A stretch of 64,000 nucleotides of DNA from Calycina herbarum (lineage: Eukaryota > Ascomycota > Leotiomycetes > Helotiales > Pezizellaceae). Both the position numbers and the translations under genes were made by a program. This document shows, one piece after another, positions 9,428 through 63,775 of the stretch (its first letter is position 1; each line of letters opens with the position of its first letter). The notes beneath the pieces are model-generated. The model was not told the origin of the DNA. It worked only from the letters and a program-made list of their open reading frames with translations, and made no database searches. Where the stretch lies: NCBI GenBank assembly GCA_001414485.1, contig LLEY01000013.1, positions 62,001-126,000 on the forward strand, in the 5' to 3' direction.

Positions 9428-9478
9428 TAGGCGACTCGATGATATAGGCGACTCGATGATATAGGCGACTCGATGATA
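9428..9478. repeat. 17-bp tandem repeat, three perfect copies
   Basis: TAGGCGACTCGATGATA repeated three times without mismatch at the distal end of the pogo remnant. It may be a multiplied terminal inverted repeat of that element; the opposite end is missing, so this cannot be verified here. Confidence 0.85.
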
Positions 9479-9964: not shown

Positions 9965-10498
9965 TCACCCCCTCCAACCCCCAAGTCGCCAACAACCTCC
10001 ATCCTCAATCCCCCCTTCAAATCCCTCTTCATCCTCTTCGTTATCCTCTTCGTCATCCTCTTCCTCCAAGAGCACATCAAGGCAAAGAACCAGAACCTCC
10101 GCCCACCAAATCAGCATATCAAAAAACCAATACACAGTATCAAAGACCCAATACACAGCCCCTCCCCCTTCCAAAAACATTTCCACCTCCCACTTAATCA
10201 TCAAGCCCACATGAACCAACAAAAGAAGGACCCCTCTTGTAATATAGAGAGTGGGGGTTTCATCCGGATTTCGACGCCGAGCAGACGTTTCCTGCCATTC
10301 CAAGTCGCATATCACCGCTAAAAATATGCAGAGGAGAGGGATGGCATAATATATTGTGAAGTTGGTGAATCCTGGGTTCAATCCTGGCTCGGAGTCACGG
10401 GCAAAGAAAGGGTCGACGAGTTCTGGGCCGAATCCCAGGAAAGGTTCTAAATCCGGGTCGAGTTCAGGGATCATTTCCTGGTCGAGTTCTGGGTCCAT
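9965..10498 (-). CDS. Hypothetical small multi-pass membrane protein, 177 aa
   Basis: Single-exon ATG-initiated frame. The N-terminus (residues 1-45) is acidic and Pro-rich with repeated PELDP-like units. Hydrophobic segments follow at about residues 48-66, 88-110 and 115-143 (Trp-rich), then a run of Glu/Asp (about 144-160) and a Gly-rich tail. I recognise no family. Two smaller hydrophobic minus-strand frames lie upstream (11094-11429, 12058-12249), so this could be the best-preserved member of a lineage-specific cluster. The opposite strand also has a 121-aa frame, so coding status needs RNA evidence. Confidence 0.4.
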   Translation of the reverse strand: MDPELDQEMIPELDPDLEPFLGFGPELVDPFFARDSEPGLNPGFTNFTIYYAIPLLCIFLAVICDLEWQETSARRRNPDETPTLYITRGVLLLLVHVGLMIKWEVEMFLEGGGAVYWVFDTVYWFFDMLIWWAEVLVLCLDVLLEEEDDEEDNEEDEEGFEGGIEDGGCWRLGGWRG

Positions 10499-10640
10499 GG
10501 TTGAAAGATGTGATTGATTGGCTTCGGGTTGAGCGATTTGCGAAATTGGTTTGATGTTGGGGTTTTCAGAGAGTGGTAATAAGAGAAAGTGACTTCTGTG
10601 TTTATATCTAGGGAAACAGCGAAAAGACTTTGTCGTGTTG

Positions 10641-10860
10641 TTTAGGTCGATTGAATACCATCCTAAGTGTAGGTTTTAGAATATGTATGGAGGATTTTGA
10701 GAAAGATTTATGTTGGTGGTGTTGAAGATTGGGAAAGTGGTGATGGCGCAGTGAATCGTGTATTGATATTTTGAGAAGTCAGAAAGTGAATTTGCCATGT
10801 ATTTAGGCGATAGAATGCCGTCCTAAGAGTAAGTATTATGATGTTGGAATATGTATGATG
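10641..10860. repeat. Imperfect direct repeat pair upstream of the 177-aa frame
   Basis: A block at 10641-10694 (TTTAGGTCGATTGAATACC...ATATGTATGG) recurs at 10802-10860 (TTTAGGCGATAGAATGCC...ATATGTATGA) with a few substitutions and a short insertion. It lies in the presumed 5' region of the minus-strand frame. Function unknown. Confidence 0.55.
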
Positions 10861-11093: not shown

Positions 11094-11429
11094 TCAAGCA
11101 CCCGCAAACACCCCGTCAAACCCCCACAATAGCTCGTCCACAAACGCCACAAGCAACCCCAAAACCATGAAAACGAATGACCCTAAAACACCCACCCCCC
11201 TAAACCCTCCCCCAAGCACCATCCATCCACCCGCCACACCATTAGACCACCCATAGAGAAAGACCAAAATGCCCGAAAACAGGATAATTTTGATAACAAG
11301 GATGGTATCTGGATCCATAATTGGCTGAAACCCGGGAAGGGTAAAGAGGAAGATCCCAATCCCAAGGGGAATGATGTTTTTTATAAGAAGGAAGGTTGTT
11401 GAATCCATGATTGGCTGATGGTGCTTCAA
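11094..11429 (-). CDS. Hypothetical hydrophobic protein, 111 aa, with internal duplication
   Basis: Single-exon frame with hydrophobic segments at about residues 12-30, 42-60 and 78-97. The N-terminal ~30 residues are duplicated: a QPIMDSTTFLLIK unit is followed 30 residues later by QPIMDPDTILVIK, mirrored in the DNA by TCCATGATTGGCTGA at 11404 and TCCATAATTGGCTGA at 11314. No family recognised. It is clustered on the same strand with other small membrane-type frames, and its upstream region (11462-11490) contains a short tandem repeat. Confidence 0.35.
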   Translation of the reverse strand: MKHHQPIMDSTTFLLIKNIIPLGIGIFLFTLPGFQPIMDPDTILVIKIILFSGILVFLYGWSNGVAGGWMVLGGGFRGVGVLGSFVFMVLGLLVAFVDELLWGFDGVFAGA

Positions 11430-12057
11430 GGAGAGAGAGCAGACTTGGTTTTGTCGGTTGAAAAGAGGTGATAGAAAGAGGTGATAGAAAGAGGCAAGAG
11501 GAGAGAAAGTACGTACTCTCCTCTCCCCTAAATAAAAGGTAGTGTGAACGCTAAATTTTTATGGCGGCCTCACCAAGAACTAGTTTTACGCTACATTTTA
11601 CTTGAAAGAAAAAAAATTATTGAGATGGTGATTGAGAGGGAACTAGACTAGCGACGGATTATAGTGTTTTTTTCTGCCGACGAATCGTTGAAGTAAATTT
11701 TATAGTCGGGAACATTAACTGGTACCTAAAGCAAGTAGCAAAAGAACGAATTAAAACCATAATACCTTCGAGTGACATCCCCACGCAAAAGAGTCGAGAA
11801 ACAAGCCCCAAGAATTCAACGAAAAGAAGACCCTCTCATCTCACCATCCATTTTGTACGCAATATCTCTCAAACCCACCCGTATTATCCCAATCCTGCAG
11901 TTTCACCTCTCATTTTTCTTGCCTTTTCAAACAACCCCCTCTCCCCTATCTCATCAAGTAGACTCGTCATAAATTAGGGTGGTTAGCCTGACGGATCGTT
12001 GAAGCGAAGTGTTCCATTAACAGTCCTTGGGTTTTGATGTCAGAACAATTGAAATAG

Positions 12058-28129: not shown

Positions 28130-29770
28130 CTATCTAAAACTAAGAATAGAGTATTAAGTAACTAGATATTTAAATTTACTTATTTTTTTTGTCTAATAGA
28201 GTAACTTATAATAGATATTAAATAAATCTCTTAGAGAATTTATTAGTAAAATATTAGTCTTTAAAATTATATACTTAACTTAGGATTTATAACTAAGAGT
28301 ATAGTTAGAAAAGTGTTTTACTTATAAAGTTTTATATATATAGTTATTATTAAAATATAATATACTATATATTTACTAAGTTATAAAGTTATAAAAAGTA
28401 TAACTTTTAATATATTTTTAGTTAAATTTAAAGAGTATATATAAAGTAGTAATACCTACTATTAAGATTATATTTCTAAGCTCTAGAGTAGAAGTAAAAG
28501 AGGTATTATAAGTTTATAATAGAAAAATACTTCTAGTATAAAATTAGAAAATATTTTCAAGTATTATAATAAGTTTTCTAGAAAGTATAAAAATACTCTT
28601 ATTATTAAAGCTAAATACTAGCTTGAATTAGATTAGATTACTTACTTAATAATCTAGTAAAGTAGTAAAATTTAGATAAGAAATTAACTATATAAGTAAA
28701 ATAGATTTTATAAGCTTATTTATTTAAAATAAAATATTAAAGTAGAAGTTTCTAAGCTTACTTTAGATAATAACTTAAATCTCTATAGTTATTAAATAAG
28801 ATAATAAGTGTTAGTATAACTTAGTTATAAATCTATTTAGTTATATATATATATTATATTCTCTATAACTATTCTAGGTATATAAAGTACGACTTTTTAT
28901 ACTTATACTAGCGTTCTAATTACATAGATAGATATAAGTTATAAGCTTATTCACTTATATAATAATACTAGTAACGTTCTAAAAAGTAGTAGTTCTCTAT
29001 AACGAGAGTATAATACTTAAATCAGTTATATTAATCTATTTATAAATCTAACTATTATTATATAAGTGAATAAGCCTCTTACTTATATCTATCTACGTGA
29101 TTAGAACGCTAGTATTACGCTAGTATAAGTATAAATAGTCGTACTTCGTATACTATTATAGTAGAGATTAAAGAATAGATTATTCGTAAGAAGAGAAGAG
29201 AGAGGCTCTTCGTACTTCTTAGCTATTTATATATCTATAGAAGGATATATCCGTAATCTCGCTTAGTAAGCTACTTAACCGAGTCTATTTACTAAATTAA
29301 AAACTCTTATATAAAGTCTCTCTTTTCTTCTTAATTTCCTCGGCTCTTCTTATCTCTCTTATAATCCTTCTAAGTATAACAGTTTACACTCGAAGAGTAC
29401 TCGATCTATTAACCTTCGTATAAAACGTGACTTTACGTAACCTTATAACGTAAGAGGTTCTAACAACCGGTAATTATATATAGCCTATATATATAAAACC
29501 CCTTTCCTCGTACGTAGAATAGACTTCCTTCCTTAGTTAATTCTCTTTGTAATAAGACTACCTTATCTATTAACTTTATTATATTTAGCTTATAATAGAT
29601 ATAACTTATAAGCTTATTTACTTATATAATAACAATTATATATAAGAGTAAAAACCAGATATATATAAGTATCTTTTAGACTTATACTCGTATATAAATC
29701 TTAAATATCTATAATAAATTATATACGTACTAAACAGGCTCTAAGATACCTAGAACTCTCTTTACTTCCT
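28130..29770. other. RIP-saturated AT-rich tract, unidentified repeats
   Basis: TpA-rich, with stops in all frames. It contains a long inverted repeat (28860-29168) and otherwise unclassifiable repeat debris. The gypsy-1 element is inserted into it at 29770. Confidence 0.7.
28860..29168. repeat. Long imperfect inverted repeat (~100-bp arms)
   Basis: Arm 28866-28970 (AAGTACGAC, ACTTATACTAGCG, AGATAGATATAAGTTA, GCTTATTCACTTATATAATAATA) pairs with 29058-29160 in opposite orientation, with ~10 extra bases (a duplicated TAGCG unit) in the right arm and ~85 bp between arms. A partial third copy (AGATATAACTTATAAGCTTATT) occurs at about 29597. Probably the remains of a foldback or MITE-type element. 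Confidence 0.65.
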
Positions 29771-30216
29771 TGTTACAAATCACGTTATACGTGGTAAGTA
29801 GTCTAGACAGCGCTCCGATAGGACAAGGCACGATATCTAGGAAATAGAAGGTAATATAGAAGGGAATTAGTAATATAAAGGCATTTAGATATTCTAGGAT
29901 CTCACTATTAAATAACTATTAGTAGTTACGTAATAGATCCTCTTAAATCTCTTAAGAGATCTAGAGAGACCTAGGGATCTAGGCTTATATAAGGATCTAG
30001 GTAGTATAAGAGGTTCTATATATACCGGCATACCTGCTATTAGATAGGAGCTTCGTACTTAACTTTAGTTATTAATCTTATTATCTTATTTAATATCTTT
30101 AATATAAGTAACGAGTTCACTTCTAAGTAAATAACCTAGTATATCTATACTTCTTATCTATATACTAACCTTCGAGACTTAATCATCTTTATTTAGTTTA
30201 TTTAAGTTTTATTATA
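29771..30216 (+). repeat. 5' LTR of gypsy-1
   Basis: 446 bp, starts TGTTACAAATCACG and ends TTTTATTATA. It aligns end to end with 36347-36792 and differs mainly by transitions. Confidence 0.9.
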
Positions 30217-33200
30217 TTTTAAACACCTACTTAGAAGTTCAGTCGCTATAGCTCTAGTAACCCCCGCCGTAGCTAGCTCGAATACTAGTCGAGTTAACGT
30301 TATAGAAATATCTAGAAGTACTGCTAGAAGAACACCTACTAGTATATAGCTAGGCAGGGATAACAACAATATTAGTATACTAGACGCCCCTAAGCCTTAT
30401 AAGGTTAAAGCACTTAAAACTATTAAAGTTAAGATACTAGATACGTATTATAGAAAGCGAAAGGAACTAGACTTATTCCTTCTTTAAATAGACATCTACT
30501 TTAACTTTAATTCCGATAAATTCAAAGGTAATTATAATTTACAAACTATCTTCGCTATCTTCTACCTTAAGAGATTAGTATTAGAATAGGCTTAGCTATA
30601 TTTAGAGAACTTCTTTAAGAATAAGAATAAAGATAGAAAGATAGAATTAACTAAGATTATATTTAAATCTTAGAAAGGATTTAAGATAACTATTAGAAAA
30701 GTCTTTAAAGACTTTAACACGATTTAAACAGCTATATATAAGCTTTTAGATTTATACTAAACTAGATTAATAATAGACTATACTAATAAATTTCAACGTT
30801 ATAAGACGAAATCAAGATAAGATACTATTACTCTTATAGAACTCTTTTATAGAGGATTAAAGGTATATATCTATAAGGAAATAGCTAAGTAGAACATATA
30901 GTTCTTAACTATTATAAGTATAATTAAGGAAGTTATTTAACTAAATAACCGCCTATACGAATTCAGGAAGAGTAACCCTAGACATAGGGAAAAGAGCTAA
31001 GGGTTAGGCAAATAAAAGCACTCCTATACTAGGTATAGTAAAGAGGTAAACGCTATATAAAAGAAAACCTTTCTAAGGAAAGAAGGACTTTCCTAGGAGG
31101 AGCGAAATCGTTAACGTAAGTAGAACTTGTATTATAACTATAGCCTCTCTAGCTATAGAGCAAATAAGTATAGTAAGAAGAAAGACTCTAATAAGAAGGG
31201 ACGAATCAACACTATAGTTTATAAAGAAGTAGTATTACTTAATAAAATTAAACTTATAGATAAGGAACTTAAAGCTAGAGGATATAGTATATAGATCGAA
31301 ACAGACACTATAGATATAACTACAGACGCTATATATCTACAGCTAAACAAAGGAATTAAGTTATAAGTTAGTAGAGTATAGAATAATAATAATAATAAAG
31401 ACCTATTAATTAAAGAATATTATAATATGTAGTTAGAGATAGATTATAAATCTTCTCTTTAAGTAGAATATAAATCACTACTATTAATAAGTTCATCGAA
31501 GTTATTAGAGTTAGAATCTAACTTATTAGAGGTAGATCCTAGAATATATAAACCTAAAGAAGAGGAAATATAGGTATTTATTAAAACCTTTAAAAGAAGA
31601 AATAAATAGGTATATATAGAAGAATAGAAACCTAATTTCTAGAGCTTATATTCTACTTAAGAAGTTAACTCTACTATCTTAACTACTTATAAGATAGTAA
31701 GGAATAATTAAGATTAAGTAACTATAGTTAACTCTATTACTAGGAGGGAAACTATTAAGTTTAAGAAGCTAGGACTAAAATAGACAATACTAAATAACTA
31801 CCTAGAGGAGGGAGATCTATAGAAGGTTACTAATTTAAGAGATAATACTACTAAATAGTAGTAGTATTATCTAGAAGGATTTAATAAATATAATAGATAT
31901 CTAAAGTTAGATATTACTACTTACCTACCTAGTTAAGATTATAAATTAGTAATTAATAAGAAATATTAGATATTAAAGGTTAAAAAAGGAGTTATAATAG
32001 TATTTAAAGGATTAGGAGATTAGTAAATGTTTAGAGTTACTAAGATAGACCTCTAGGCTAACCTAATCTAGGAATTCTACTAACTTATAAAAGGTAAATA
32101 GTAGACTACTAAGACATTATATAGAGTAACTATTAAATAGGTTTAGTATAAACTACGAGTATTATTAGACTAGTTTATAGAAAGACGTTTTATAAGAACA
32201 CTTCTAGAACTTACGAGAACTATAGAAAATAGTCTAATATATAAAGTAGCTTTTTCTAATAATAAAAAAGTAATATTCTTCCTAAGCTTAAAAAGAGGAA
32301 GTAATAATAAAAGAAGATTTAAGGTTTATTATATTAAACTAGAAGATTATACTATTATAGGAGAGTTAAACACTATATCTAGAGAAAATCAACTTATAGT
32401 AATAGCGAAGATAAGTGGAAAGGAACTTCAAGTCTTAATTAATTCTAGAGTAATAGGTAATTTCCTTTCCTTAATAGCTTAGAAGAAGCTAAATATCCTA
32501 ATTAAAGATATAAGGCTATACTACTTAGGAGTAGTTAATAGAATAAACGTTATATACTAGAATAGAATTATTAATTAATAAACTATTCTAATAAAGATTA
32601 CTATTAAAAGATACTACTTAGATATATAATTTCATATTATTAAAATAGGGAATAAGGAAGCAATACTTAGTATACTATAGATTTAAGAACATAATCTAGA
32701 TATTAACTAGAAGGCTTAGGAAATAACCTTTAGTTAATATAATTATATAGGTTTGTAATTATAACTATAAGGCTAGAACGAGGTTAGTACTACCTCTTCT
32801 AAGATACTAGGACACCTTACCTAGGGTCTTCTATAGGTTAGTAAGACAGCTAATAACAAAATACCTATATAGTACAGAGAATTTAGAGCTTTATTCAAAA
32901 ACTTAAAAGACTTATAAGCTTTACTAGAACATTGCTTATAGGATTATAAGATTAAATTAAAAGAGAGTTATTACCTTTTAAAGCAAAAGCTTTAGTTATA
33001 TAACTAGAAAAGCTTATAAAGAATAGAAAGTTATATAAAAGAAGGTATTAAGAAGGGACATATTAGGAAGTCTAAGTTACTAATTACCTTAAATATACTT
33101 ATTATTAAGAAGAAAGACGACCTAGACAGGAGAGTATATATTAATTACTAAGAAGTAAATTATACTATAGTTAAGGACGCTTATCTATTACTACTTAGCT

Positions 33201-36200
33201 AATACTTATAAGACAAGTTAGATAAGGTAGTATGATTTATAAAACTAGATTAATAAAACGCTTATAGACTTATATAAATAAAAGTTAAAGACGAATAGAA
33301 GATAGTATTTACCTTACTATTAGGCTTTTATAAATATATAGTTATACTATTTAAACTCTATAATATACTAGCTATATATTAGAAATAAAATAATAATATT
33401 TTAAGAGATCTTCTAAAAGTAATAGTAATCTATTATCTAGATAATATCTTAATCTTCTTAGAAAAAGAAGAAGAATATAAGAGATATATTAAAGAAGTTT
33501 TATAATAACTTATAAAAGTAAACTCTTAGTTAAAACTCTTAAAATACGAGTTTAGAGTAACTTAGACACTTTTCCTAGGATAGGTATTTAGCTTAGAGAA
33601 AATAGAAATAGATCTAGTAAAGATCTAAGATATCTTAAACTAGAAGTTACCTAAAAATATAAAAGATATATAGTCCTTCTTTAGATTTATAAACTTTTAC
33701 TATCTATTTATATAAGACTATATAAAGATTACTAAACTAATATTAGTACTAGTTAAGAAAGCTATTAAATTTATTTAGAATAAATAAGCTAAGAACGCTT
33801 TTTAAAAGATTAAAGTAAGGTTTATAGAAAAACCTATTCTATACGATTTTAATATAAAAAAACCTAGTATAATTAAAATAGATATCTTAGATATAGTAGT
33901 AGGTACGATTTACTTATAACTAAATAGAAAAGAGAAACTTATATCTATTATATATTATTTAAAAATATTTAACCTAATATAATAAAACTATAGTATCTTT
34001 AATAAAGAATTACTTATTATATTATTAGCCTTAGAATACTAGAGAATCTACTTATAGCTAGTAAAATACTAAGTTATAATTCTATCTAACTATAAGAATC
34101 TTAGAACGTTTATAATAACTAAGGAACTTATAACTAGGTAGTTAGCTAGATAGGTAGAAATATTAAGAGGATTTAACATTGTTATTTAATATATAAAAGG
34201 AACGTTAAATACTTAAGCTAATACTCTTAGCTAAAAACCTAGATATAAGGGAAATAAAGAGTATAAGAAGATTATAATCTTAAAAACTCTTAAGAATAGA
34301 GACTTAGTACCTACTATATATAAAATAGTAGTAATAAATAACATCTAGATAGATAAAATTTAGAATATTTATAAAGGTTATAACTAGTATATAAAAGGGA
34401 AACTATAGGTTCTTAGCTTATATATAAAAGAGTTTATATAAGAATACTATACTATACCTACTTATAGCTACTAAGGAATTCGTAGAACCCTTTAGTAGAT
34501 AAGATAATACTACTATATTAATCGATTATCTATAATAGTTAAAGAAGTAATAGTAGAATATAATACTTATATCTAGAATAAGGCTTTCTACTATACTTCT
34601 TATAGATAGATAAACACTACTCTAATACTATAAATACCTTAGAAATCGATATCTATAGATTTTATTATTAAATTACTAAAATCTAAAGATCTAATAATAA
34701 GAGTTAAATATAACGTAATCCTAGTTATTATAGAACGTCTTATAAAGTATATAATTCTAATAGTATATATAGAATCAAGTATAGCTAAGGAACTAGCATT
34801 CGTATTCCTTAGAGAGATAGTCTTAAGACATAGACTAACTAAAGAAATACTCTTAGATAGAGATAAGCTCTTTACTTTAAAATTTTAGATTACTCTTATA
34901 AACGATTAAGTATAAAAAGGAAGCTTTCTATAGCTTTTTACTCTTAAATAAATAGAGGAAATAAACAGATAAATTAAGTAGTTAAAATATACTTTTATTA
35001 TTATATAAACTACTAGTAAAACGACTAGGTAGAACTACTGCCCTTAGCATAGTTTACCTATAATAGTTTAGTAATAGAAATAACACTTATTATACTATTC
35101 TATACTAACTTTAGATATAAATTATTAATATATTAAGAACTACTATCTATAACTATTAATAACTAACTTACTTATATTTAAGTCTTAAAAATTAAAAGTC
35201 TATATAAGGAACTTATAAAGGATTTATAGTTTATAGCTAAAAGAAATATATACTACTATAATAAACGATGTAGTTAGAAGCTAACGCTAAAAGAGGAGGA
35301 TAAGGTCTACTTAGTATAAAAAAATATTAATATAAAAAGACTAAGTAATAAACTAGACTATAAAAAACTTAGACTATTTAAAATTAAATAAGTTAAGAGA
35401 CCTTTAAATTATAAATTAGTATTACTAAAGATAATAAACATCTATCTAGTATTCTATATATCCTTACTTAAACTAGTACTACTAGGGGTACTACTAGCCC
35501 TATTTATAGAAATTCAACTAGTAAACCTAAACGTTAAATATAAAGTTAAGAGGATTCTTAACTATAAATTTATTAGAAGATAAGTTAAGTATCTAATTAA
35601 ATAGTTAGATTACCTATACTTAGAAAACACTTAGGAGCTAAGAAGTAATCTTAACTATTACCTAGTAGAACTTTAAAAGTTCTATTAGGAAAACCTAGGT
35701 TTACTTATATTTTATAGTCTAAAGAAAAAGCTATAAAGAAGGCTAGGTTAAGAACTATCTTAGATTAGGAATTAGTAGGAATAGGTAGGGCTGCTAGATA
35801 AGCAACCTCTACCTCTCGCTACTCTTATTCCTCTCTTTCTTTCTCCTCCTTCTCTTTCTTTTCTACCTCTTTAGTAGCGTCGAGTTTATTAAGAAAACGA
35901 AGTCCTTAATAAGACATCTTACGTTGCCTTTCTTTAAGAAATGCCTTCTACTTTCGTAACTATAGAATCTTTGTTATTACCTCTTCTTCCTCCTTATCTA
36001 GCTTTTCCTCTTATCTTTTAATAGAAGACTAGTTACTAGTATAGAGAACGTTCTTCTCCTAAGCATTATCGGTTCTATTATATTTTAGCTTTAATTAAAC
36101 GTATTTAAAATATTAAGAAGATTAGAAGGTATTAATAAAACATCTACGCTTTTAGGAAGCATAGTAAGAGTATAGTAATATTTTATTATAAACTATTTTA

Positions 36201-36346
36201 ATATTTTTTATAAGAAGTATTCGTTCTTCTTTCTTCTTTTATATAAGATAGGATATAATAGAAAGGAAAGGATACTACTAGTACCTTAACCAAGTTTCTT
36301 AGCTTATACTTAAGCGTAAGGACACGCTAGGCTAAGAAGGGGATAG

Positions 36347-36792
36347 TATCACGAATTACGTTATACGTAGTAAGTAGTCTAGACAGCGCTCTAATAAGAT
36401 AAGGCACGATATCTAGGAAATAGAAGGTAATATAAAAGAGAATCAGTAATATAAAGGTATTTAGGTATTCTAGGATCTTACTATTAGATAACCGTTGATA
36501 GTTATATAATAGATCCCCTTAGATCCTTTAAGGGATCTAGAGGGACCTAGGGATCCAGGCTTATATAGGGATCTAGGTAGTACGAGAGGTTCTATATATA
36601 CTAGCACACCTGCTATTAGATAGGAGCTTCGTACTTAACTTTAGTTATTAATCTTATCATCTTATTTAACATCTTTAATATAAGTAACGAGTTTACTTCT
36701 AAGTAAACAACCCGGCGCATCTATACTTCTTACTCGTATACTAACCTTCGAGACTTAGTTATCTTTGTTTAGTTAGTTTAAGCTTCGTTATA
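36347..36792 (+). repeat. 3' LTR of gypsy-1
   Basis: 446 bp, starts TATCACGAATTACG directly after the polypurine tract and ends CTTCGTTATA. The terminal TG...CA has become TA...TA by transitions. Confidence 0.9.
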
Positions 36793-36797
36793 TTCCT

Positions 36798-37113
36798 TTA
36801 CTATAATATTTCTATAATATTTAGAGTTAAACGATTTTACTAGAAATATAAATATTATTTCATCTTATTATTACTTAATTAATTTAAGACTCCTAGTCTT
36901 TTAGTATAATATTAAGAAATCAACGATATTACAGCGAAGAGTCAAAATATACTTCATCGTAACTTCATTTGTGTAATTTATTTTTTCTCGATTTCTCGTA
37001 CAATATCACTGAGTGCTTGTTCTTTCCTTTATTTTACTATAAATAGCGAGTAAACCATACTAGGTCTCTTGAATGGGTAATGCCCGACAGCTACTACGTC
37101 CATCTCATCAACC
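36798..37113. other. Edge of the AT-rich tract
   Basis: Composition returns to normal between about 36900 and 37080. No gene seen. Confidence 0.4.
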
Positions 37114-37512
37114 TCAGCCTTGGTAGCCAGGTGGGTTATTATCTACACCCTTAGCAACCCCAACCATTCCATGCACTTTCACTTTCACAATCCATAAATT
37201 GTAAACTGAATTTGAGGAGTTTGACTGATTGAGAATCTTGTTTTGAATAGAATGGAGCACCCTATGAATTCTTAGTTGTCAAAAGTCGACTGTGTATATT
37301 CGATTCGGGGGTGCATACCATCCAGGAAATTCATCGGTCATAAACTTCGTCAAAGCAACTGGGAGGACCATATCTGATTAAGGTAGCATGAAAATTGGTG
37401 GCTGCGGCAGAACCTCCTTAGCGATGGGAAGTCCCAGATGATTGCGACACTTCAGCGTCGCAAGCTGGTTTCCTTCACGGTACCACACACATTGGAGAAA
37501 TAGAGCTGACAT
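37114..37512 (-). pseudogene. Tandem-family member 4, broken by one in-frame stop
   Basis: Two exons, 37512-37319 and 37261-37114 (113 codons plus stop), aligned throughout with the intact neighbours. The N-terminus reads MSALFLQC, followed by GLPIAKEVLPQP, then DEFPGW at the splice site and NLWIVK in exon 2. A single TAA inside exon 1, about 45 codons in, interrupts an otherwise open frame on both sides. The intron is at the same place and phase (2, inside the Trp codon) as in the other members. It lies closest to the RIP tract. A readthrough product or a sequencing error is possible, so RNA and read data should decide. Confidence 0.7.
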
Positions 37513-37919
37513 TGAGAAGAGGATTGATGCGTGATGAAAGCGCTGTGAGGCTTCCAAAGAGGAAGGACAAAAAGTATACTGATCAAAAGTGGATGGTCAG
37601 TATTGTGCCTCTCGTTTAGTCGGCCAATCATAGCTGTACATCAGAACTAGATAATTTGAGATCACTATTATTTTTACTGCACGCAAAAGCCATAATGTAC
37701 TGATGAGGCTTGTACAAAAAAGATTCAGATTATGGTTCTGATCAAAGACAGCGCTACACCACAGCTCATATGGAATCTTCTTATCCTGGTTGATCTGCGA
37801 GTGAGGGCACAAAGATCATACTGAGAAAATCTTGGTACATGCTAATAGCTTTGCTGCTAACAAAACTTAACCCGGCGACCCGAAAATTCCTGACCTAGTA
37901 CCTCAAACTCCATTCCTTA

Positions 37920-38292
37920 TCACTTGAAATTCATCATATTTCTCAAGACACCCGTATCTGCCGCAGCAACACTATCTTCCTTGACGATCCACAAGTTCAG
38001 GAGGGGACTACTATTTACATACGCCTCCTGCGCGGAGTATAAAACCCTAGAATTATTAGCCACGGCCGTTTAAATCCATGGAAATCTATCCGGGGGGAAA
38101 ATACCCTTGTGAGAAATTTTCATTCAAGAGCTCAGTAATCGCATTAATGTGCATTTGTGTTGTCAAAATTTCGGGAGCAATTTCTGGCTGAGGGAGATTT
38201 TCTCTTGCCACGCTGAGACCAGGTGAGTTGATCACATGAAGTGATTGACTCTTGCCTTCGTACTTGCACTTTAAGAATCGAGCAGATGCCAT
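37920..38292 (-). CDS. Tandem-family member 3, unknown small protein, 104 aa
   Basis: Exons 38292-38105 and 38046-37920 (315 nt). It starts MASARFLKCKY, has SPGLSVARENLPQP, then a NENFSQG end of exon 1 and VLYSA...LLNLWIVKED in exon 2. The family Trp codon at the splice site is Gly here (GG|G instead of TG|G). The intron (58 bp) ends TAATTCTAG. No signal peptide or membrane segment; predicted cytosolic or nuclear. Unspliced, the frame stops after 68 residues. Same strand and spacing as its paralogues. Confidence 0.7.
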
Positions 38293-38631
38293 GATTCGTT
38301 GTATTTTTGGTGCGGGGTTTCTTTGGTGGTGGATGTCTTGGTGATGTAATTGAGAATGGATCTTGTGCTAAGGCTGAGAGAATCTTTGTAAGAGATAGGA
38401 TCCTGGGTGATTATATACCTTTCGGCTACTTTAACCTGACTGGAGTTCACCTATTCACTGTATATTGGGTATTCTTGCTTATTCTTGGAGAAAATAGTCT
38501 TCACTCATGTTATGTACGAGTAATCATATGCGAGGATTGCCCCAAATGATAAACACCAAGTTCTGGTAATCCCAATTCATATCGTGATGACATCATATAA
38601 TAATTATTTAGACCTCATTCTAACAAAAGAA

Positions 38632-39072
38632 TCACTCTGATTCTGACGCATCCATCGTCTCAGTATCGGAATCAGTACTTGGATCTGAATCTGAACTATC
38701 CATCTCGCTATCCCTATCACTATCAGAATCGCCTTCTACCTCTCCCTCCTTCACAATGTACAAGGTGATAAAACCACTATTTGGCTCGCAAAAGATTGCA
38801 GAATGCAGAACCCTAAGCCATTATAAATGAAAGGTTCTGTAAACATATGAGAATCCTTACCAGCCCGGAAATTCTTCACGTATAAGCAAAGTGATTGCCT
38901 TTGTCAAACCACTGACCTTGAGCATTTGTGTAACATCTGGCCGTCTTAGGAGGTTTTTAATTGTGATTGGCAAACCTGGCGAGTTCAGGCACTTGACGAT
39001 GATTCGTTGCTCATTGCCAGATAAAGTGAGGTTTGGCGCATATTGACATTGTACAAGAAGTGGAGCGAACAT
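38632..39072 (-). CDS. Tandem-family member 2, unknown small protein with acidic Ser/Asp tail, 130 aa
   Basis: Exons 39072-38861 and 38812-38632 (393 nt). The core follows the family: QCQYA near the start, CLNSPGLPI, REEFPGW at the splice site, then VLHSA and TLYIVKEG. Unlike the others it ends in a ~45-residue Asp/Ser/Glu-rich tail (SDSD-type repeats), a pattern often seen in casein-kinase-2 substrates or nucleic-acid-protein chaperones; that functional link is inference. The 48-bp intron is in phase 2 in the Trp codon as in members 1 and 4. Confidence 0.7.
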
Positions 39073-39822
39073 CTTGGGGTGTTCTTTTTTTTTAGAAGTT
39101 GGATAAAGTTGAAAAGTAAGCTGGGTTGTCAAAGTGGGAAGTAAAAAAGGTGACGCACCAAAATGGTCGGGATTTTGGGTTTGCAAACCACTATCATACC
39201 AACATATCTAGTAGCCTAGCACTACCCCCTTCCCAAAACTTGTTAGAAACCATAGCCAGACCCAAAAAGACTGTTTTAGCCAGAAATCTCCATATTTCAA
39301 ACACAAACAAGAACTTACGTCATAGTCCTTAATCCACTAGCAGGCATTTAATAGGTGTATATATACGAGTAAACTCAACTTTAAAATTATATTATCTGAG
39401 AAGTTTTAAATTGGTTGATTTAACTGAATGAACTTCCGAGAGTATAAAAAATATAGATTTATTTATATTTAGCTAAGTAATATTCACTTAAGATAATTAA
39501 TCGACAAAGCTTAGGATAATCAAGTTAGGTGAAGAGAATTACTTCACTATCGTCTGATAAATTTGGGTTATTACGTCATACAACGTCTTGAAGGCTGGTT
39601 CCAACTCAAATTTATCCTTGTCAGCACATAAATTATATGTACACAAAGAGGACATTTCATGAGAATATTGTTCAAAGTTAGGGCTTTATTGTGTTCATTT
39701 CGATTGTGTTTAGCCAGCACTTCAAAATCTCCCCAATGACAAAGCAAAATCATGTGCCTGCTCCCCTCAGGATAACCTTCCAAATCAAAACCCAAATGTA
39801 TCAGTGCCAAAGGTGAAGCCGA

Positions 39823-40243
39823 TCACTTGTCATAGACAACAACATAACCAGATTGCGCCATGTCCTCCTCAATATCACTTCCACCATCCACAGCCAAATC
39901 ATCCTCAGCCTTCTTCACATCCTTCACAACGGTGACATTGACTCCTTTTACAATCCAGAGGTTGATGATCTCCCCTGAAGCCTCAAGTGGTGTGACGGCG
40001 TAGAGGACCCTAGAACAAGTCAGTATGTGAAGTCATGACAGATCGAAGTACATACCAGCCAGGGAAACTTTCTTTGATGAATTTTGTAACATGACCAGCA
40101 AGATCGGTGCGCGCGGCAATCTTATCAAGGGATGGACGTTGTGGAAGAGTTTCCTTTGCGATCGGTGTACCTGGGAAGTTGGTGCAAACCAGGGTTTGTT
40201 GGTAGAAAGTGCACTGCAAGAATTTGAATCGTTCAGCAGACAT
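39823..40243 (-). CDS. Tandem-family member 1, unknown small protein, 124 aa
   Basis: Exons 40243-40056 and 40009-39823 (375 nt), 46-bp intron GTATGT...TTCTAG splitting the Trp codon in phase 2. It starts MSAERFKFLQC, has FPGTPIAKETLPQRP, then IKESFPGW, VLYAVTPLE, INLWIVKGVNV, and an acidic stretch before a YVVVYDK end. I chose the inner ATG (40243) because members 3 and 4 start at the equivalent place; an in-frame ATG at 40342 would add 33 low-complexity residues. No known domain recognised. Confidence 0.7.
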
Positions 40244-42999
40244 GTCTGGTGTTGGATGATTGTGGTGAGTGAGAACTGGTGTTGTGGTTGTGATTGTTTC
40301 GTGTTGAAGTTGAAGTTGAGGAAGTGTTTGCGACCGAATCATGGAGGTCCTGAAGTTTTGCTTCGCTTAGCCACCTTTGACTTGCCCCACAGACAACCTT
40401 TCCGTACCTCACTCTCTTCACCTCATCTAGCATCACTTTTCCTATCTTCGATGTTTTCAAAGCGTCTGACAGCTCCCTCATGAAAGGAAACTCACTTACT
40501 AATGCTATTTCAAGACCCGCTTCCTCAATTCCTACGCCATTCGCTTCTCAAGTATATATATATTTTTTCTTTTAAATATAATGATTTTATAATGAATACG
40601 TTGAACGTTCTAAATCTGATCCAGTTAACCTGATTCTTCTAGAATTCATTGAATAATTTCATTCTGTATATGCTGTCTAGATAATCGATATATCTAAATT
40701 CTATCCAAGCAATTTGCGTTTTCCAGTTTTTCTAAATAACATACTATTCAGATACACGCTCTATCCCGATTTTAGCTAGTTGATATAATTCTAATTTACG
40801 AGAATAAATTAGTTTTCTTATGACCAAGTTGTAAGTGGCCGCAATTAATTCGTCAGATGGTGAGTAATCTATTAATATCCGCATGGCTTGTTTGGGACGC
40901 ACTTTTCCGCCCCCATGGTGGGAGCTTACTCGTTATTTTGTAGCTTACTAGGTCCATTTTAAAAAATGTGGTTATAAACACGTGACAGCGCCATCGAAGC
41001 CAACCAATCATAGTGAAGAGAGCAGTATGCTGCATACTTTGTTGCACGTCGATAAGTTCTAATAATTAGAACAAATTAGAACTTTGGGGCGGCCGCACTT
41101 TGCTTGTTCAGCTTGCTGGATATGTTTTGAAGAGTGATAGCTTACTCGCGACTCACTTTTCGCCCCTAAACAGAGTTTGGCTTACTGGTCAACTTGCAAG
41201 TAATCCACAAGTAAGCCACGAGTAAGCTATCTGAGTAAGCTACGAGTAAGTTACAAGTAGCTCGCAAGTAACTCCAGCGCCAAGGACCTTCAAGACTTTA
41301 GTCTGCTGGACAGCCTTTTTATAAGAGTAGAAGAGAAGCACCAAACGCACGTCGAAACTAAGAAAGGCTTTTTCAGCTACCAAGAACCACTACACTCCAG
41401 CACCCGTACTTCTCAGCAACCTCCCTCTTCGCCTTCATGGTGAAAATATCGAATGTGGTTCTTGATTGCTATCCGCGAAATCTTCCTTTCTCCCAATGGA
41501 CCTCTTTCTTCAAGGCCAGTAGATTTAGCATTTCTGTAGTTCCTTCTCTTGGATCTCTTCTTAGTTCTCATGGCAGGGCGTTTGGCAATGCCAGGTTGCT
41601 CGTCCCAAGAACAAGGTATTGCCCAAGTCGAGGGAAGGAACGACGTCGACGGCGTACCACCCGACGTCAAGGTCGAAATTCACGGAAAGAATGGCTCACG
41701 TCGACCCCAACCTCGACCTCGACACGAACCAGGCTGCATCCTAATCTCTTAGCAGCATTTTCGCGTATTGCCAGATGGTTTCAAGGGATATAGGTCAGGA
41801 ATCTCAATCGCCGCGGATGGGGATCATGTGCAGCAGTCTTCTCTCCCGAGGTAACAACAGCGTATCGCTCCTAGGTTTGCCCTGTTAAGTTGATAAGAAT
41901 CGAATCCCGCTTCGATGTTCCTTATTTCAAAATATCAGGGATCATTCCTTACCCCTCTATCCTTGGACAGCAACTTCCTATCTCGGAATGACTTTGTAGA
42001 TGAGTCCTTGAAAGAAAAATGAATGGCTCCCCAAGAGCAACACCGAAGCAGTCTCGAGAAAGGGTTTTTCGAAGGAGGTCGAGAATGAAGACCCTCGCCG
42101 CGGTTAACCCACAGCCCACCCGCCTCGCTCCCTCCTTCCCAAACCACCTCAACTCCCATGCTTACTTGACCACAAATAACACTTTCAATTCCGTCCCAAC
42201 AAAAACAGAGCCGGGTGGCGCACCTGGCTCTGTTACTGCTAACGCAGAAAAATGGTTTGAGGGCTCAGTTAGTGAGAATTCGTGAGGAGTGTTTAAATGC
42301 TTGCTCAAGCTCAACTACACTGTTGAGCTCTGGAGACCTTGACCACGGATTCAGTATATCTGCTGTCCAATTTCAATAAATGTGATTTCCGAGGGATCTA
42401 CGCCTTTTGACGGAATGGCAGTTCCGGGGAATTGTGGGGGTTCTCATCTTGTCTGTTGAGTTAAGAGGGTATCTGAATCCTTCTTTGAGCTTACTGCTCC
42501 AGTTCGAGTTATTGATCTAGTCTGACCTCAGACCTCTACCTATTTGCTCTCCATCACATGCTCGATGTAGAGATGTCGGGTAACACACTACAGCTCGTGA
42601 AGATCATGAAACAAGCCACCCATGTAATATTTCAACGTGACAGTGTCCCAGGTGTGGCCTTGAGGTATGGCTTCCGTCATTTGTACTGTGAACCACTCGT
42701 GACCAGGTTCCAATCTGTGGCATGACACCAAACGAAGCGTAAGTTGAACTTCGTATCTTGGTAGAAAGGATAGAGACACAAGATCGGAGCTATGGGATTG
42801 TAACAGGTAGTCGTACAGCGGAGGCCGAATTGTTGCCCCGTGCGTGTCGAGTTATGATTGCTCTCTCCACTTGCCTAGGAAAATATCCAAGCAGTCCGCT
42901 GATGGAAGGTGTAACCAAGGAATTGTCCAGAACTATTTTAGGAAGAAACTGAGGGATAGAGTAAACACCTTACCTGCAACGTGCCCATTTACTCGATGA
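40244..42999. other. Intergenic, 2.75 kb, with short-repeat cluster
   Basis: 40540-40860 is AT-rich. 40915-41285 carries the AGTAAGC repeats listed separately. Frames at 41437-41793 (+) and 41413-41670 (-) overlap each other and show no family features. I cannot support a gene here. Confidence 0.4.
40915..41285. repeat. Clustered AGTAAGCYA short repeats in both orientations
   Basis: Inverted units (TAGCTTACT, AGCTTACTCG) at about 40921-40950, 41139 and 41171, then direct units (AAGTAAGCCACGAGTAAGCT and similar) at 41195-41270. A second cluster of the same unit lies at 57250-57400. The layout resembles subterminal repeats of a non-autonomous DNA transposon, but ends and a target-site duplication were not resolved. 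Confidence 0.45.
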
Positions 43000-43200
43000 C
43001 CACTGCTGCGTTTAAATAAGGTTCAGCTGGACCAGTTTCCCGGTTGTACAGAGAGAAAGCGCCACGGTACTACCATGAACTGAGGGAAATATTTGTGACC
43101 ATTTTGGTGACACACTGCCAACCTCACACAAACTATTCACGTCCAACGGTGTATATTGTGTGATTCGACTAAATCTCAGCTTGTAACGACGAGGAAACAT
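43000..43200 (-). pseudogene. Possible frameshifted gene fragment
   Basis: On the minus strand an ATG frame from 43200 reads coherently through SPKWSQIFPSVHGSTVALSL, then shifts at a CTCTCT run (about 43049-43054). In the next frame it continues LYNRETGPAEPYLNAAVVIE and stops. A two-base expansion of the CT run would explain this. No family recognised. It lies head-to-head with the histidine phosphatase gene. Confidence 0.3.
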
Positions 43201-59164: not shown

Positions 59165-60070
59165 TCAGGAACATTTGCATCCCCGGTAGATTCCACTTAC
59201 GCAAATGTTGTTCACGCCAAAACATTTGTTGAGACTGCAAGGTCCAGGCTCATCGCCACAGACACTGACACAAGGACAGCCATTGTATATTCCAGCAGTG
59301 CACAAGCCTCCAATTCGCAATTGGTCATTGATTCCTTCGCAAACTGAATCACTGCACTTAATTATGGGCGGGTTCTGGCAGGAGTTTGTCGCCAATGCCG
59401 AGAGAATAGGGCTCGTAAAAGTATTACTGCTCGTCGTATCTAATATAGGATCTGAGGAGGAGAGAGACGCGGAAGTCTGCAAAGTCGTAGGAGCTGGTGG
59501 GTTCGTGATTGCTGGTGAAGTTGTTACGCTGATAGAGATTGAGACCATGGTTGTTGTGCTTTGAGAATATATTGTATTTGAGGAGGTGGAGGATGTAGTT
59601 TGTATATCGGACGTCCTGTCAACCTTTGGCGAAGACGCTAATCTTCAGAAATACTGTTAGCATATATTCATAAAAGTAGGTACAGACGGCAAGAGGTTAT
59701 ACCTATCAGGATTATTATTTCCACTTTTCCCTTGCAATGCCCTCGCAACTAATACCCCAACTGTAATGCAGATAACACTCAAGAGAATAGCAGCGGCGAA
59801 AATCCAAAGACGGCGTTTTCGTCGTATTAGGGCAGATTCTTGTAATGAGGATGATTGGGATTTCTGGCTTTCGGTTTCCAGATTGGTATTTGACGTAGAA
59901 AAAATTGTTGGCGTTTCAATCTCCGTGTCCGCGCTGGCGACTGGATATAACTCTGAAGCAACCGGAACGACTTCCACGGAATTGTAGACAGGTATCTCCA
60001 GTCCACTAAGATGCACAACATCTGCCAATTCAAGGCCCTCTTCAATCTGGTCTTGCTTAATAGAAACCAT
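59165..60070 (-). CDS. Single-pass membrane protein with duplicated Cys-rich module, 281 aa (copy A)
   Basis: Exons 60070-59703 and 59642-59165 (846 nt). A hydrophilic N-terminus (LSGLEIPVYNS near residue 22) is followed by RRKRR at about 95 and one transmembrane segment at about 102-122. After it comes a Ser/Thr-rich stalk (~90 residues, likely O-glycosylated) and a C-terminal domain with 12 Cys. That domain is two related modules: CEGINDQLRIGGLCTAGIYNGCPC-type (split in my reading as CEGIND...LCTAGIY...CPC) and CFGVNNICVSGIYRGCKC. RRKRR before the membrane segment favours a cytosolic N-terminus and outside C-terminus. The layout is like WSC-type wall sensors but the Cys domain is different and unnamed to me. 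The start at 60070 aligns with copy B; an upstream ATG (60163) is less likely. Confidence 0.7.
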
Positions 60071-60781
60071 TTTCTCTGCATCAGTAGTACACGCTATTGA
60101 CGACCCCTCGAACGGTAGAAATCGCGAAGCATAATCAATGAAAATGGCAAGCAGACAGTACATATAAGTGAGAGGGGGGGAAGCGCCGGACCACTAGGTA
60201 GAATCTTCGTGGCATATTACTAGCCCGAGGCAGGAGTTTGAAGCTTACTGTGGACTCTAGACGTAGAGAGATACTTCTCCTACCAATTAACCGCCCACAT
60301 CGCAATGTATGCCACGACGCACCAAACTGATACTGCGGCTGAGAGTGTAGATAGGAAGGGGAAATCTCACAAGTTGGCCTGGTATATGAAAACAGGATTA
60401 GATGGTGTGGGCAGCCAATTGGGGCTAAGTATCATAGGAGGCTGTGGATAGAAACAAGAATTGTAGTGGTGTTGAGGGATTTGGAGAACCTGAAGCCCGG
60501 CGGTAACTTGGCTAAGCTTACTTCAACCTTACATGTCAGGTTCCCCTCCAAAGTTATAAGAAAATAGCAAAATTCTTCAAGCTCTCAGTTCCAACTACGC
60601 TCACAAAGTAATAAACATAATCTTACAAAAGGAAAAACATTCTAAATAATATACCAGCCCAAGATTGGCTCACTATCTGCTTGTGATAGGAATTTGCCCA
60701 TGTGTGCAACGCCTGGTTAAACCACCCAATTGCTTTCAAGTTCACTGGCATTCGTCATTTCCTGTTTCATCAATGTAGCTT
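60071..60781. other. Spacer between the two Cys-rich paralogues
   Basis: Presumed promoter of copy A and 3' region of copy B; no other feature seen. Confidence 0.4.
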
Positions 60782-61692
60782 CTACCTGCAGAAACACCCC
60801 ATAAACCGACCAGCAGTGCATGTATAGTTGAGACCATTACAGTTCTCACAATAGCAAGAGTTACCATATAACCCGCAAATGCTGTAGCAAGGGCAATTGA
60901 CATATTTCCCCGCGGTACAGATTCCCAACCCGCCTCTAGGATTGTTAAATCCATCGCAACCAGCCTTGTCACAACCCAACATTGTATTGTTGCAAGACTT
61001 GTTTGCTTTGGTCATAATCGCTGAGGCCCCTGTAGTTGTGAACATCCTCCTTGTCCGTGTTGACCTCGAACCCGATGTTGGCGTATGAGTATAGTCAGCC
61101 GAAGGCGAACTTCTAGACATTGAAGTCGCAGAAGCCGCTCTAATCGCAAACCGCGCAGTTCGAGTTATATTCAGGAATGGACCTAAATTCGAAGTCGGTC
61201 GCGAGAACTCGGATGTATATATGGAGGAGAACGAGGAGGTGGCTTGCGCAAGGGGAGAAGAAGTGGAAAGTTGACTTGGGTTCTGGGTTCTGCTCGTGGA
61301 TTAGCGCAAGTTCATCCTACTCGGAGTTTTCTGACATGCCTGCGATTTGGATGCTCCATTAAACATTCCTGTATTCGAGCTCCACCCACCCCCCAGACAA
61401 GAGCTGCGCCTGCTACAATGAGGAACAAGACGGCTACTCCAGCACGATATAGATTGTTACTGCCGAACCTTTTCGTGGTTTTGCCTGTTGATTGAGACTC
61501 GTGGTCGTCATTTGGAATTGGGCTATCCTCCCTCCGCTCACTATGTAACTGACCCTCCCTGTCCACATCAACGGTGTATAATGGGTTGTGGATTGGAAGA
61601 ACTTGGGGCGCATTATTGATTGGGATTTCGAGGCCTGAAGGAAACTCCATAGCTTGGAGACCTTCATGATCGGGGCTTATTGGAGAAATCAT
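60782..61692 (-). CDS. Single-pass membrane protein with duplicated Cys-rich module, ~267 aa (copy B)
   Basis: Proposed exons 61692-61390 and 61282-60782 (804 nt). Paralogue of the preceding gene: FPSGLEIPINN near residue 20, basic KTTKRF, one hydrophobic segment ending at the splice site, a Ser/Thr-rich stalk and 13 Cys in two modules (CDGFNN...ICTAGKYVNCPC and CNGLNYTCTAGRFMGCFC). The intron edges are less certain than in copy A: the region around 61389 offers GTGGGT as donor and CCCAG as acceptor (107 bp), with alternatives nearby. Unspliced, exon 1 runs to a stop after 34 further codons. Tandem and same strand as copy A, so a recent duplication. Confidence 0.6.
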
Positions 61693-63775
61693 CGTCGAAG
61701 GTCGTCGTATGCTCTTGTCTTCAATCGACAAAATGGAGTAGATAGGAATGAACCTTTCGTGTCCTGTGTATCATTAACAATCGCCAACGGGAGGATATAT
61801 ACCTCCTGTTGAATTCAATTCCATTTTGTGCGTCCCCATTTCAAAGCAGACGTCGGCAATGCCGCTATATTCAGATAGGCAAAAGAACCGCAAAGATACT
61901 TATTCTCCATATCAGGCTTTCTAGAAGAATATAAGCTTCTTCTGTGCGACTTCGCTTTGCCCTGATGAATAACAACTTCAGCCTTATTCAACACATATGT
62001 GCGTCTTGCGGTAGGAAGGCTATACTGATTCGCACATGAGAAATTGATGGAGGGTCCCCATGCAAGGGTTTAGGACACCTGCATCGGAGCCTCCTAGACG
62101 CAGAAAGATGGTGTAGAGGATTCTGATGGTAACGTCCCAAATCCATAGGAGAGTAAGAAAGATTGTTGGAACTGCCAAGACGAAAAGAAAACCAAGTCAA
62201 CGTATATGAAAACGCTTGACAGAAGAGATAATGGGTAATTCAAGTAGCATGCGTAAGTATGTATAGAGAAGTGCAAAAAAAGGTTGAAGTATGTGTAGAT
62301 GGAGAGATCATTTTTGCAACGGTGTTTTGGAGCGTGGAACTTAAAACAAAGTCTGGGTGGGTGCCTTGATGCCTTGATGCCTTAATGCCTTGATGCCTTA
62401 TAAGGCTTCCACCACCCGTCATCTTGGAATGAAACTGCTTCGACAACAATCCTGGGATCATCTTCAATTGTGTATACATTGTCGAACTCCGAGCAGCCGC
62501 GGCACTCAGTACATACCTGCCCTTGTACCGAGGAACATGTGATTAGGATGTCGCTTCGGCTTCCAAAGCGGTACTCGATTCGGCATATGATCAGTTGAGC
62601 GATCCAAGGATAGCTTACTACCGGATCCCACAGGCCCACAGGATGCCTTCGTACCAATCGACTCACTTCCCCCTTATGCACGGATTCCGGAGCTGCCTGT
62701 GCCATTTATATACTCTCTTTGGATTGTACGTTTTTGGCGATGCCAATAAAATCCTAGTTGAACATTTCAGGAGATGTGAATGGTCCTAGTATTCTTTACA
62801 TATTTCCTATTCAGGTCTTATCTGGTCCATTCCTCCTTTGGGGGAAATAATTTTCTCGCCTTGTCACACACCTGAGAAAGTTGCTGGACCTGAATTTTGA
62901 AATCACGTTTTTCCGACCACTCTATCACCGGGCTGTCCGTCAATGAAACGTTTCAGAGGTATTATTTCTACCAATTACGAAGAGACATAATTCATCGACT
63001 GAGAACTGACCAGGCCGGATCGTCGGAGGATCATCTTGGTTTGATAGAAATCTTCGGGAATTCTTTTGGATTGAGTAATCCCGAGAAACGGCAAAAGAAC
63101 ACAACAGATTTCTTTCCTGTCTGATTAGCCTCTGCTTAGTTCTCAAAAGTTCCGATTTCTCCTTTTTCTCTCCCTCATCAAACATTACGCTGTCTCAAAT
63201 CAGAGCTCTCGTCGCCAATGATGGTCGGCGCGTCAATGTGTTAACGGTCCAGCCCGCGATGTCTTCTTCAGAAAATACGCCTGCCTCAATCTTTATGACA
63301 AAGAATCATCATATATGGAAGAGGCCAGGAGGAGAGTTATACTTGAAGATTGACAGCCTGGACGGGAGTCCGGGGGTCGTGCCTTCCCTTCTCGACCCAA
63401 AGACCTCCCCACTAGTTAGCTGGTGCGACGAGGGAAGGAGCGACCTCGAGAGTTCTGATGAATTCTTTTCCCGTCTACCTAGTAATATCCTACAATGGTA
63501 AAATGATCGTTGTCCGCTATACCACTTATCTCAAGCGGCCTGTTCATCATCAACATCTTACAAAATCGAAAGCCTACAAGAGATTCCCAACACCACCTAT
63601 CTGTTTCTACATTGTACTATCATATCATTGCTCGCCTTCGCATACCCACAATCCCATTCCAAAAGATCAAAAAAAGGTAAATTCCATTTATTCCATACAA
63701 AATTATTTTTCATCTCTCACATTATCATACCAACTCATAAACAACATACATTAACTAATCCCCCACCCCCTCACC
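61693..63775. other. Intergenic, 2.1 kb, no supported gene
   Basis: Holds the 8-bp tandem repeat at 62363. A 107-codon minus-strand frame (62705-62382) runs into that repeat; it has a CTECRGC cluster but no family signature, so I leave it uncalled. Plus-strand frames at 62897 and 63238 are short and featureless. Confidence 0.4.
62363..62400. repeat. 8-bp tandem repeat GCCTTGAT, ~4.75 copies
   Basis: Four consecutive units, the third with one G-to-A change, plus a partial fifth unit. Confidence 0.8.

What the first reader, a model, noticed from the sequence alone, without database searches (positions are those of the whole stretch)
37114..40243. Tandem array of four small two-exon paralogues of an unrecognised family
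Four minus-strand genes of 104-130 codons share the same architecture: Cys-containing N-terminus, [GP]xPIAKExLPQ-type block, xxFPGW at the exon end, VLYA/VLHS then NLWIVK in exon 2, and a phase-2 intron (46-58 bp) at exactly the same Trp codon. Each member is hidden from unspliced frame analysis because the intron contains a stop. Tails diverge strongly (one has a Ser/Asp run), suggesting fast evolution. The array starts about 320 bp from a dead retrotransposon. I know no named domain with this pattern.
Basis: partly seen in the sequence, partly recalled or inferred. Interest (0 to 1): 0.78.

Follow-up and report, generated by a model that had tools for sequence, protein, structure and literature searches.

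The report
Tandem fungal orphan genes, one broken
A fungus carries a cluster of four related short genes that match no family in the searches made; three look intact and one carries a premature stop, which looks like ordinary gene birth and death beside a mutated repeat rather than a new kind of system.

Summary
Four minus-strand, two-exon paralogues (m1-m4) lie in tandem at 37114-40243, each with one short phase-2 intron (46, 48, 58, 57 bp) at the same aligned codon. Their exon-1 frames outscore every unrelated frame of the window (847 frames), and m1-m3 similarity is far above shuffles. Two details are wrong. m4 has an in-frame TAA in exon 1 (37380-37378), so only three copies are intact. 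m3 reads FSQG, not FPGW, so its split codon is Gly. Pfam gives no convincing match. Three searches of 5.8 billion proteins returned only the window's own exon-1 frames. In the 68.8-Mb genome every credible hit lies in this array. Nonsynonymous change is below synonymous, which is saturated. A high-copy repeat with a RIP-like (repeat-induced point mutation) signature ends about 285-320 bp from m4. Best reading: an old, tandemly duplicated, apparently lineage-restricted family of small acidic proteins without an evident signal peptide. A strand-strand-helix-strand-strand domain is only hinted at by two poor models. Function is inference.

The parts
39823..40243 (-). m1, two-exon gene of 124 aa: exon 1 40243-40056, intron 40055-40010 (46 bp, GTATGT...CTAG), exon 2 40009-39823
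   Evidence: closest to m4 in exon 1 (63% over 30 aligned codons)
38632..39072 (-). m2, two-exon gene of 130 aa with a Ser/Asp/Glu-rich tail: exon 1 39072-38861, intron 38860-38813 (48 bp), exon 2 38812-38632
   Evidence: pI 4.3
37920..38292 (-). m3, two-exon gene of 104 aa with FSQG in place of FPGW: exon 1 38292-38105, intron 38104-38047 (58 bp), exon 2 38046-37920
37114..37512 (-). m4, same architecture, with an in-frame TAA at 37380-37378 in exon 1; intron 37318-37262 (57 bp); probable recent pseudogene
36793..37113 (.). AT-rich spacer between the repeat's edge and m4, with a faded RIP-like signature (composite index 0.49 over 36793-37116)
29000..36792 (.). AT-rich block with a strong RIP-like signature (composite 1.51). 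Its last 793 bp (36000-36792) match dozens of places in the genome; the rest was not searched for copies. The left limit is approximate and the repeat's type was not tested.

Best explanation
This is an old tandem duplication of a small protein-coding gene in a filamentous ascomycete (organism inferred, not named). Within the genome the family was found only in this array, and no recognised relatives were found. Shown: four homologous two-exon units, a shared intron place, three intact frames, one frame with a premature stop, and protein-level constraint. Inferred from the sequence: the products are small, acidic and cytosolic or nuclear, because no clear signal peptide is seen. Hinted at by two poor models: one compact domain, with two strands and a helix encoded by exon 1 and two strands by exon 2, followed by a diverging tail. 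Most likely mode of action (inference only, about one in five): a small protein-interaction module whose conserved core keeps the fold while acidic, Ser/Asp-rich tails vary the partner or are phosphorylated. The array evolves by birth and death, with m4 the copy now being lost.
For: Homology: z 15-22 against shuffles for m1-m3. Whole-genome protein hits at E 10 or better: one search gave 4 of 4 in the array, one search gave 3 of 4, one search gave 3 of 3, one search gave 2 of 2, one search gave 1 of 1 (itself only); hits on the query's own gene are counted. The one outside hit, C336:258982 (E 0.023), lies in a frame that I read as an FHA-domain kinase (label recalled) and take as chance. A motif pattern for the NLWIVK/TLYIVK block gave 24 places, all four members among them; 13 of the other 20 read a stop inside the motif, 6 of the remaining 7 were inspected and show no family exon, and one was not inspected. 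Constraint: pN 0.44-0.48 against pS 0.70-0.75, third codon positions most diverged. Four introns in phase 2 at one place. Predicted elements: strands 9-14 and 17-22, helices 39-44 and 47-59 in m1 exon 1; helix 54-67, strands 90-95 and 102-107 in the m2 read-through model. pI 4.9, 4.3 and 5.6 for m1, m2, m3.
Against: No transcript evidence. Structure models are poor (mean pLDDT 61 and 42), and the m2 model shows no strands in its exon-1 part, so the two models do not agree on the first hairpin. The interaction-module idea has no direct support. dS is saturated and the codons were aligned on protein level, so pN and pS are only qualitative. The hydropathy test for a signal peptide was crude; m2 and m4 begin with a short hydrophobic stretch (9-residue mean 1.7-1.8). 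Exon 2 is weak evidence by itself: m1 exon 2 found no other member in the genome, m2 against m4 exon 2 is no better than shuffles (345 of 1000), and exon-2 frames of other members mostly fall among unrelated frames.
Confidence: 0.7

Rival explanations
1. The members are highly diverged copies of a known small alpha/beta domain (for example a beta-grasp/PB1-like or longin-like fold) that sequence searches miss.
For: Strand-strand-helix in the m1 exon-1 model and strand-strand in exon 2 of the m2 model. The likeness to these folds is recalled, not tested.
Against: No credible Pfam match or PDB sequence match (best E 0.58). Foldseek on the exon-1 model: 0 matches at E 0.001 or better among 38 at E 10 or better, on a weak and partial model.
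Confidence: 0.35
2. The array is a cluster of decaying pseudogenes with no product.
For: m4 has a premature stop. The array lies next to a RIP-marked repeat.
Against: Three intact spliced frames, shared splice places and pN below pS. Composite RIP indices of the gene units (-0.80 to -0.94) are below those of the window's gene-bearing flanks (-0.35 to -0.41).
Confidence: 0.1
3. The genes are host-directed small effectors, as in arrays beside RIP islands of plant-associated fungi.
For: Small, orphan, tandem and near a RIP-marked repeat. The association is recalled.
Against: No convincing N-terminal signal peptide: best 9-residue hydropathy in the first 35 residues 0.7-1.8. One or two Cys in each exon 1, not a Cys-rich pattern. 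The lifestyle of the organism is unknown.
Confidence: 0.1
4. m4 is functional after all, through undetected further introns, stop-codon readthrough or an assembly error.
For: The frame keeps its register across the stop, and the pieces after it keep family motifs.
Against: The TAA stands in the assembly. No single GT-AG intron of 35-120 bp starting in the first 300 bases opens a frame over 55 aa; combinations of two introns were not tested.
Confidence: 0.2

Closest known systems
Lineage-restricted tandem orphan gene families of filamentous fungi (general kind, recalled)
   Same: Small proteins, tandem paralogues, no recognised domain, near an AT-rich RIP-marked repeat, one copy being lost
   Different: No clear signal peptide; copies only 35-37% identical (m1-m3) yet alignable in the core; only four units found in the genome
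Shugoshin_N (PF07558) and PaaB (PF06243), the only Pfam matches at E 10 or better
   Same: Short local similarity: m2 to Shugoshin_N E 0.022, m3 to PaaB E 0.057
   Different: Far below the curated cut-offs (15 of 30 bits, 14.1 of 27 bits), a different family for each member, none for m1; taken as chance

Membership tests
Any Pfam-A family | Score at or above the curated cut-off | tested here: not met
   m1 no match; m2 and m3 one sub-threshold match each, to different families
A family with a solved structure | Sequence-profile match to a PDB chain | tested here: not met
   one match, E 0.58
Lineage-restricted tandem orphan family | Paralogues in tandem with shared gene structure | tested here: met
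Lineage-restricted tandem orphan family | No relatives outside the lineage | tested here: inconclusive
   searches found only the window's own frames, and searches confirmed nothing in viral and prokaryote contigs, but no set of annotated fungal proteomes was at hand
Lineage-restricted tandem orphan family | Coding constraint on the copies | tested here: met
   pN below pS in 10 of 10 comparisons made (two m4 pairings were not made); qualitative, since dS is saturated
Secreted small effectors | N-terminal signal peptide | tested here: inconclusive
   hydropathy only; no long hydrophobic segment, but m2 and m4 start with a short one
Beta-grasp/PB1-like or longin-like fold | Fold match of a confident model | not testable with these tools

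The most novel reading that the evidence does not exclude
The four genes define a new small protein domain of strand-strand-helix-strand-strand order, unique to a narrow fungal lineage, whose copies diversify their acidic tails while a fixed core and a fixed phase-2 intron persist beside a RIP-inactivated repeat.
Probability: 0.25. Interest if true: 0.45.

Novelty: new member of a known kind. Interest (0 to 1): 0.3.

Why it matters
If expressed, it is a compact, well-delimited orphan family that analysis of unspliced frames would miss because of its short introns. It shows gene copies without a RIP-like signature about 300 bp from a heavily RIP-marked repeat. It does not point to a new kind of mechanism.

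Tried and rejected
RIP leakage as the cause of the m4 stop: the RIP-like signature is strong in the repeat (composite 1.51), weak in the spacer (0.49) and absent in m4 (-0.80), so leakage into the gene as a whole is not supported; a single mutation cannot be excluded. Weakly positive 400-bp windows also occur at 39200-39599 (0.38, between m2 and m1), 41200-41599 (0.43) and 42800-43199 (0.21), so values of that size are not special to the repeat's edge.

A fifth family member at C336:258982 (E 0.023): its frame reads as an FHA-domain kinase (label recalled), so rejected as chance.

More members by motif: of 20 places outside the array, 13 carry a stop inside the motif, 6 of the other 7 were inspected and rejected, and one (C336:776196) was not inspected.

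A viral or bacterial source: no relative confirmed in viral contigs (76 stretches matched a pattern) or prokaryote genomes (63 stretches).

RNA genes: Rfam gave 0 matches at gathering thresholds, ARAGORN 0.

Fold search with the exon-1 model against the PDB: no meaningful match. The m2 model was judged too weak and was not searched.

Literature: five searches of the held library, with combinations of orphan-family, tandem, RIP, lineage-specific and leakage terms and with the string NLWIVK. Four listed nothing; one listed a single paper, PMC10470754, of which I saw the listing with the start of the abstract and which I did not use. This is a thin search and no proof that the family is not in print.

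Full report
The window comes from contig C35 of a 68.8-Mb assembly in 379 contigs. Gene content (MutS-type mismatch-repair protein, OPT transporter, amidase, RibD_C, NmrA, 2EXR), short introns and an AT-rich block with a RIP-like signature (RIP: repeat-induced point mutation) suggest a filamentous ascomycete. No tool named the organism; that is inference.

Anatomy. Four units run on the minus strand. m1 (40243-39823), m2 (39072-38632) and m3 (38292-37920) each give an intact spliced frame of 124, 130 and 104 aa when one GT-AG intron of 46, 48 or 58 bp is removed. m4 (37512-37114) has the same layout with an intron of 57 bp at 37318-37262, but its exon 1 is cut by an in-frame TAA at 37380-37378. 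I tried every single GT-AG intron of 35-120 bp that starts in the first 300 bases of m4; none gave a frame over 55 aa. Pairs of introns were not tried. The frame keeps register across the stop.

Shared features. All four introns are phase 2 at one aligned place. The codon they split is Trp in m1, m2 and m4 and Gly in m3, which reads FSQG. PIAKExLPQ is exact in m1 and m4 only; m2 has PITIKNLLRR and m3 SVARENLPQ. Exon 2 starts VL[YH][AS] in all four and holds NLWIVK in three and TLYIVK in m2. One N-terminal Cys is present in all four; a second one follows in exon 1 of m1, m2 and m4.

Is it chance? Smith-Waterman scores were 125, 105 and 92 for m1-m2, m1-m3 and m2-m3, with z 22.1, 18.8 and 15.2; 0 of 1000 shuffles reached them. 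m4 pieces were compared apart, in nine comparisons: seven reached z 4.9 to 17.2 (at most 2 of 1000 shuffles as high) and two did not stand out (m3 with the middle piece, 74 of 1000; m2 with exon 2, 345 of 1000). In a second control the three spliced proteins (m1 and m2 without their tails, m3 whole) were scored against 847 stop-to-stop frames of at least 35 aa in the window. The exon-1 frames of the other three members rank above every unrelated frame in each case, though for m2 the m4 frame (46) leads the best unrelated frame (41) only narrowly, and exon-2 frames of other members mostly do not stand out.

Selection. On aligned codons among m1-m3, pN is 0.44-0.48 and pS 0.70-0.75; third positions differ most (0.63-0.68). 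In seven comparisons with m4 pieces (two of the nine possible were not made) pN is 0.27-0.42 and pS 0.59-1.01. Synonymous change is saturated, so only the direction counts, and the alignment was made on protein level, which favours matches at first and second positions. The reading is that the copies, m4 included until lately, were kept as proteins. m1 and m4, at the two ends of the array, are most alike in exon 1 (63% over 30 codons), so simple neighbour-by-neighbour duplication is not obvious.

Copies in the genome. Searches with m1 exon 1, the first 98 residues of m2, m3, the first m4 piece and m1 exon 2 gave 4, 4, 3, 2 and 1 hits at E 10 or better, the query's own gene included. All lie in the array except one, C336:258982, in a frame that reads as an FHA-domain kinase (label recalled). 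A degenerate pattern for the NLWIVK/TLYIVK block matched 24 places (the reversed control 8): four in the array and 20 elsewhere, of which 13 contain a stop, 6 were read and rejected, and one was not read. The genome search scores only its best candidates, so a distant member could be missed.

Relatives elsewhere. Three searches of about 5.8 billion proteins gave 1 of 9, 3 of 1862 and 3 of 8 candidates at E 10 or better. These are P0002-P0004, which equal the window's own exon-1 frames of m1, m3 and m2; each is listed on a contig of 19,563 bp and with no source name (sequences). Viral and prokaryote contig scans confirmed none. The three proteins are unspliced frames, so intron-bearing fungal relatives may be missed; lineage restriction is likely but not shown.

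Known domains. Pfam gave no match for m1 and one weak, different match each for m2 and m3. NCBIfam gave two weak matches (E 0.0045 to a pyruvate kinase model at 15.6 of 686 bits; E 0.031 to PaaB). The PDB sequence search gave E 0.58 at best.

Structure. The exon-1 model of m1 (3 sequences) has mean pLDDT 61 and pTM 0.25, with strands at 9-14 and 17-22 and helices at 39-44 and 47-59. The m2 model, with its intron read through as an insert (5 rows), has mean pLDDT 42 and pTM 0.25; it shows a helix at 54-67 and strands at 90-95 and 102-107, but no strands in its exon-1 part. Pieced together they hint at strand-strand-helix-strand-strand, with the first hairpin seen in one model only. Neither is good enough for a fold search; the one made, with the exon-1 model, gave nothing.

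Surroundings. DNA from 36000 to about 36792 matches dozens of places in the genome (48 matches listed, one of them the window itself; 40 of 1966 candidates scored), most about 90% identical. The block 29000-36792 has composite RIP index 1.51, the spacer to m4 0.49, and the four gene units -0.80 to -0.94; weakly positive windows also occur between m2 and m1 (0.38) and further right (0.43, 0.21). That the repeat is a retrotransposon was not tested. The stretch 37600-39860 (m3, m2, their spacers and the end of m1) has one other short DNA match in the genome (63 bp). No RNA family or tRNA was found in the window.

Verdict. A real but ordinary small tandem gene family of unknown fold and function, with one copy broken. 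The mode of action I commit to, a small intracellular interaction module with variable acidic tails, is inference from size, charge and layout, at perhaps one in five.

Noticed in passing
59165-61770 (minus strand): Two neighbouring paralogous genes: the N-terminal frames share 43% over 35 residues (E 8e-06) and the Cys-rich C-terminal frames 39% over 74 residues (E 2e-15). No Pfam match above a cut-off.
   Followed up: partly
40233-40547 (minus strand): An open frame of 104 codons just upstream of m1 and overlapping its first bases, with no Pfam match at E 1 or better and no other copy in the genome at E 0.01 or better; possibly the m1 leader or a separate small frame.
   Followed up: partly
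40902-41281: Short pieces of the stretch upstream of m1 recur at 13 other listed places in the genome (79-92% over 47-75 bp), and it holds an 11-bp tandem repeat at 41197-41271: probably remnants of small repeats.
   Followed up: no
9965-10675 and 11094-11558 (minus strand): Two open frames with hydrophobic stretches and no Pfam match; they are not similar to each other (E 0.59).
   Followed up: partly
9428-9478: Three perfect copies of a 17-bp unit.
   Followed up: no
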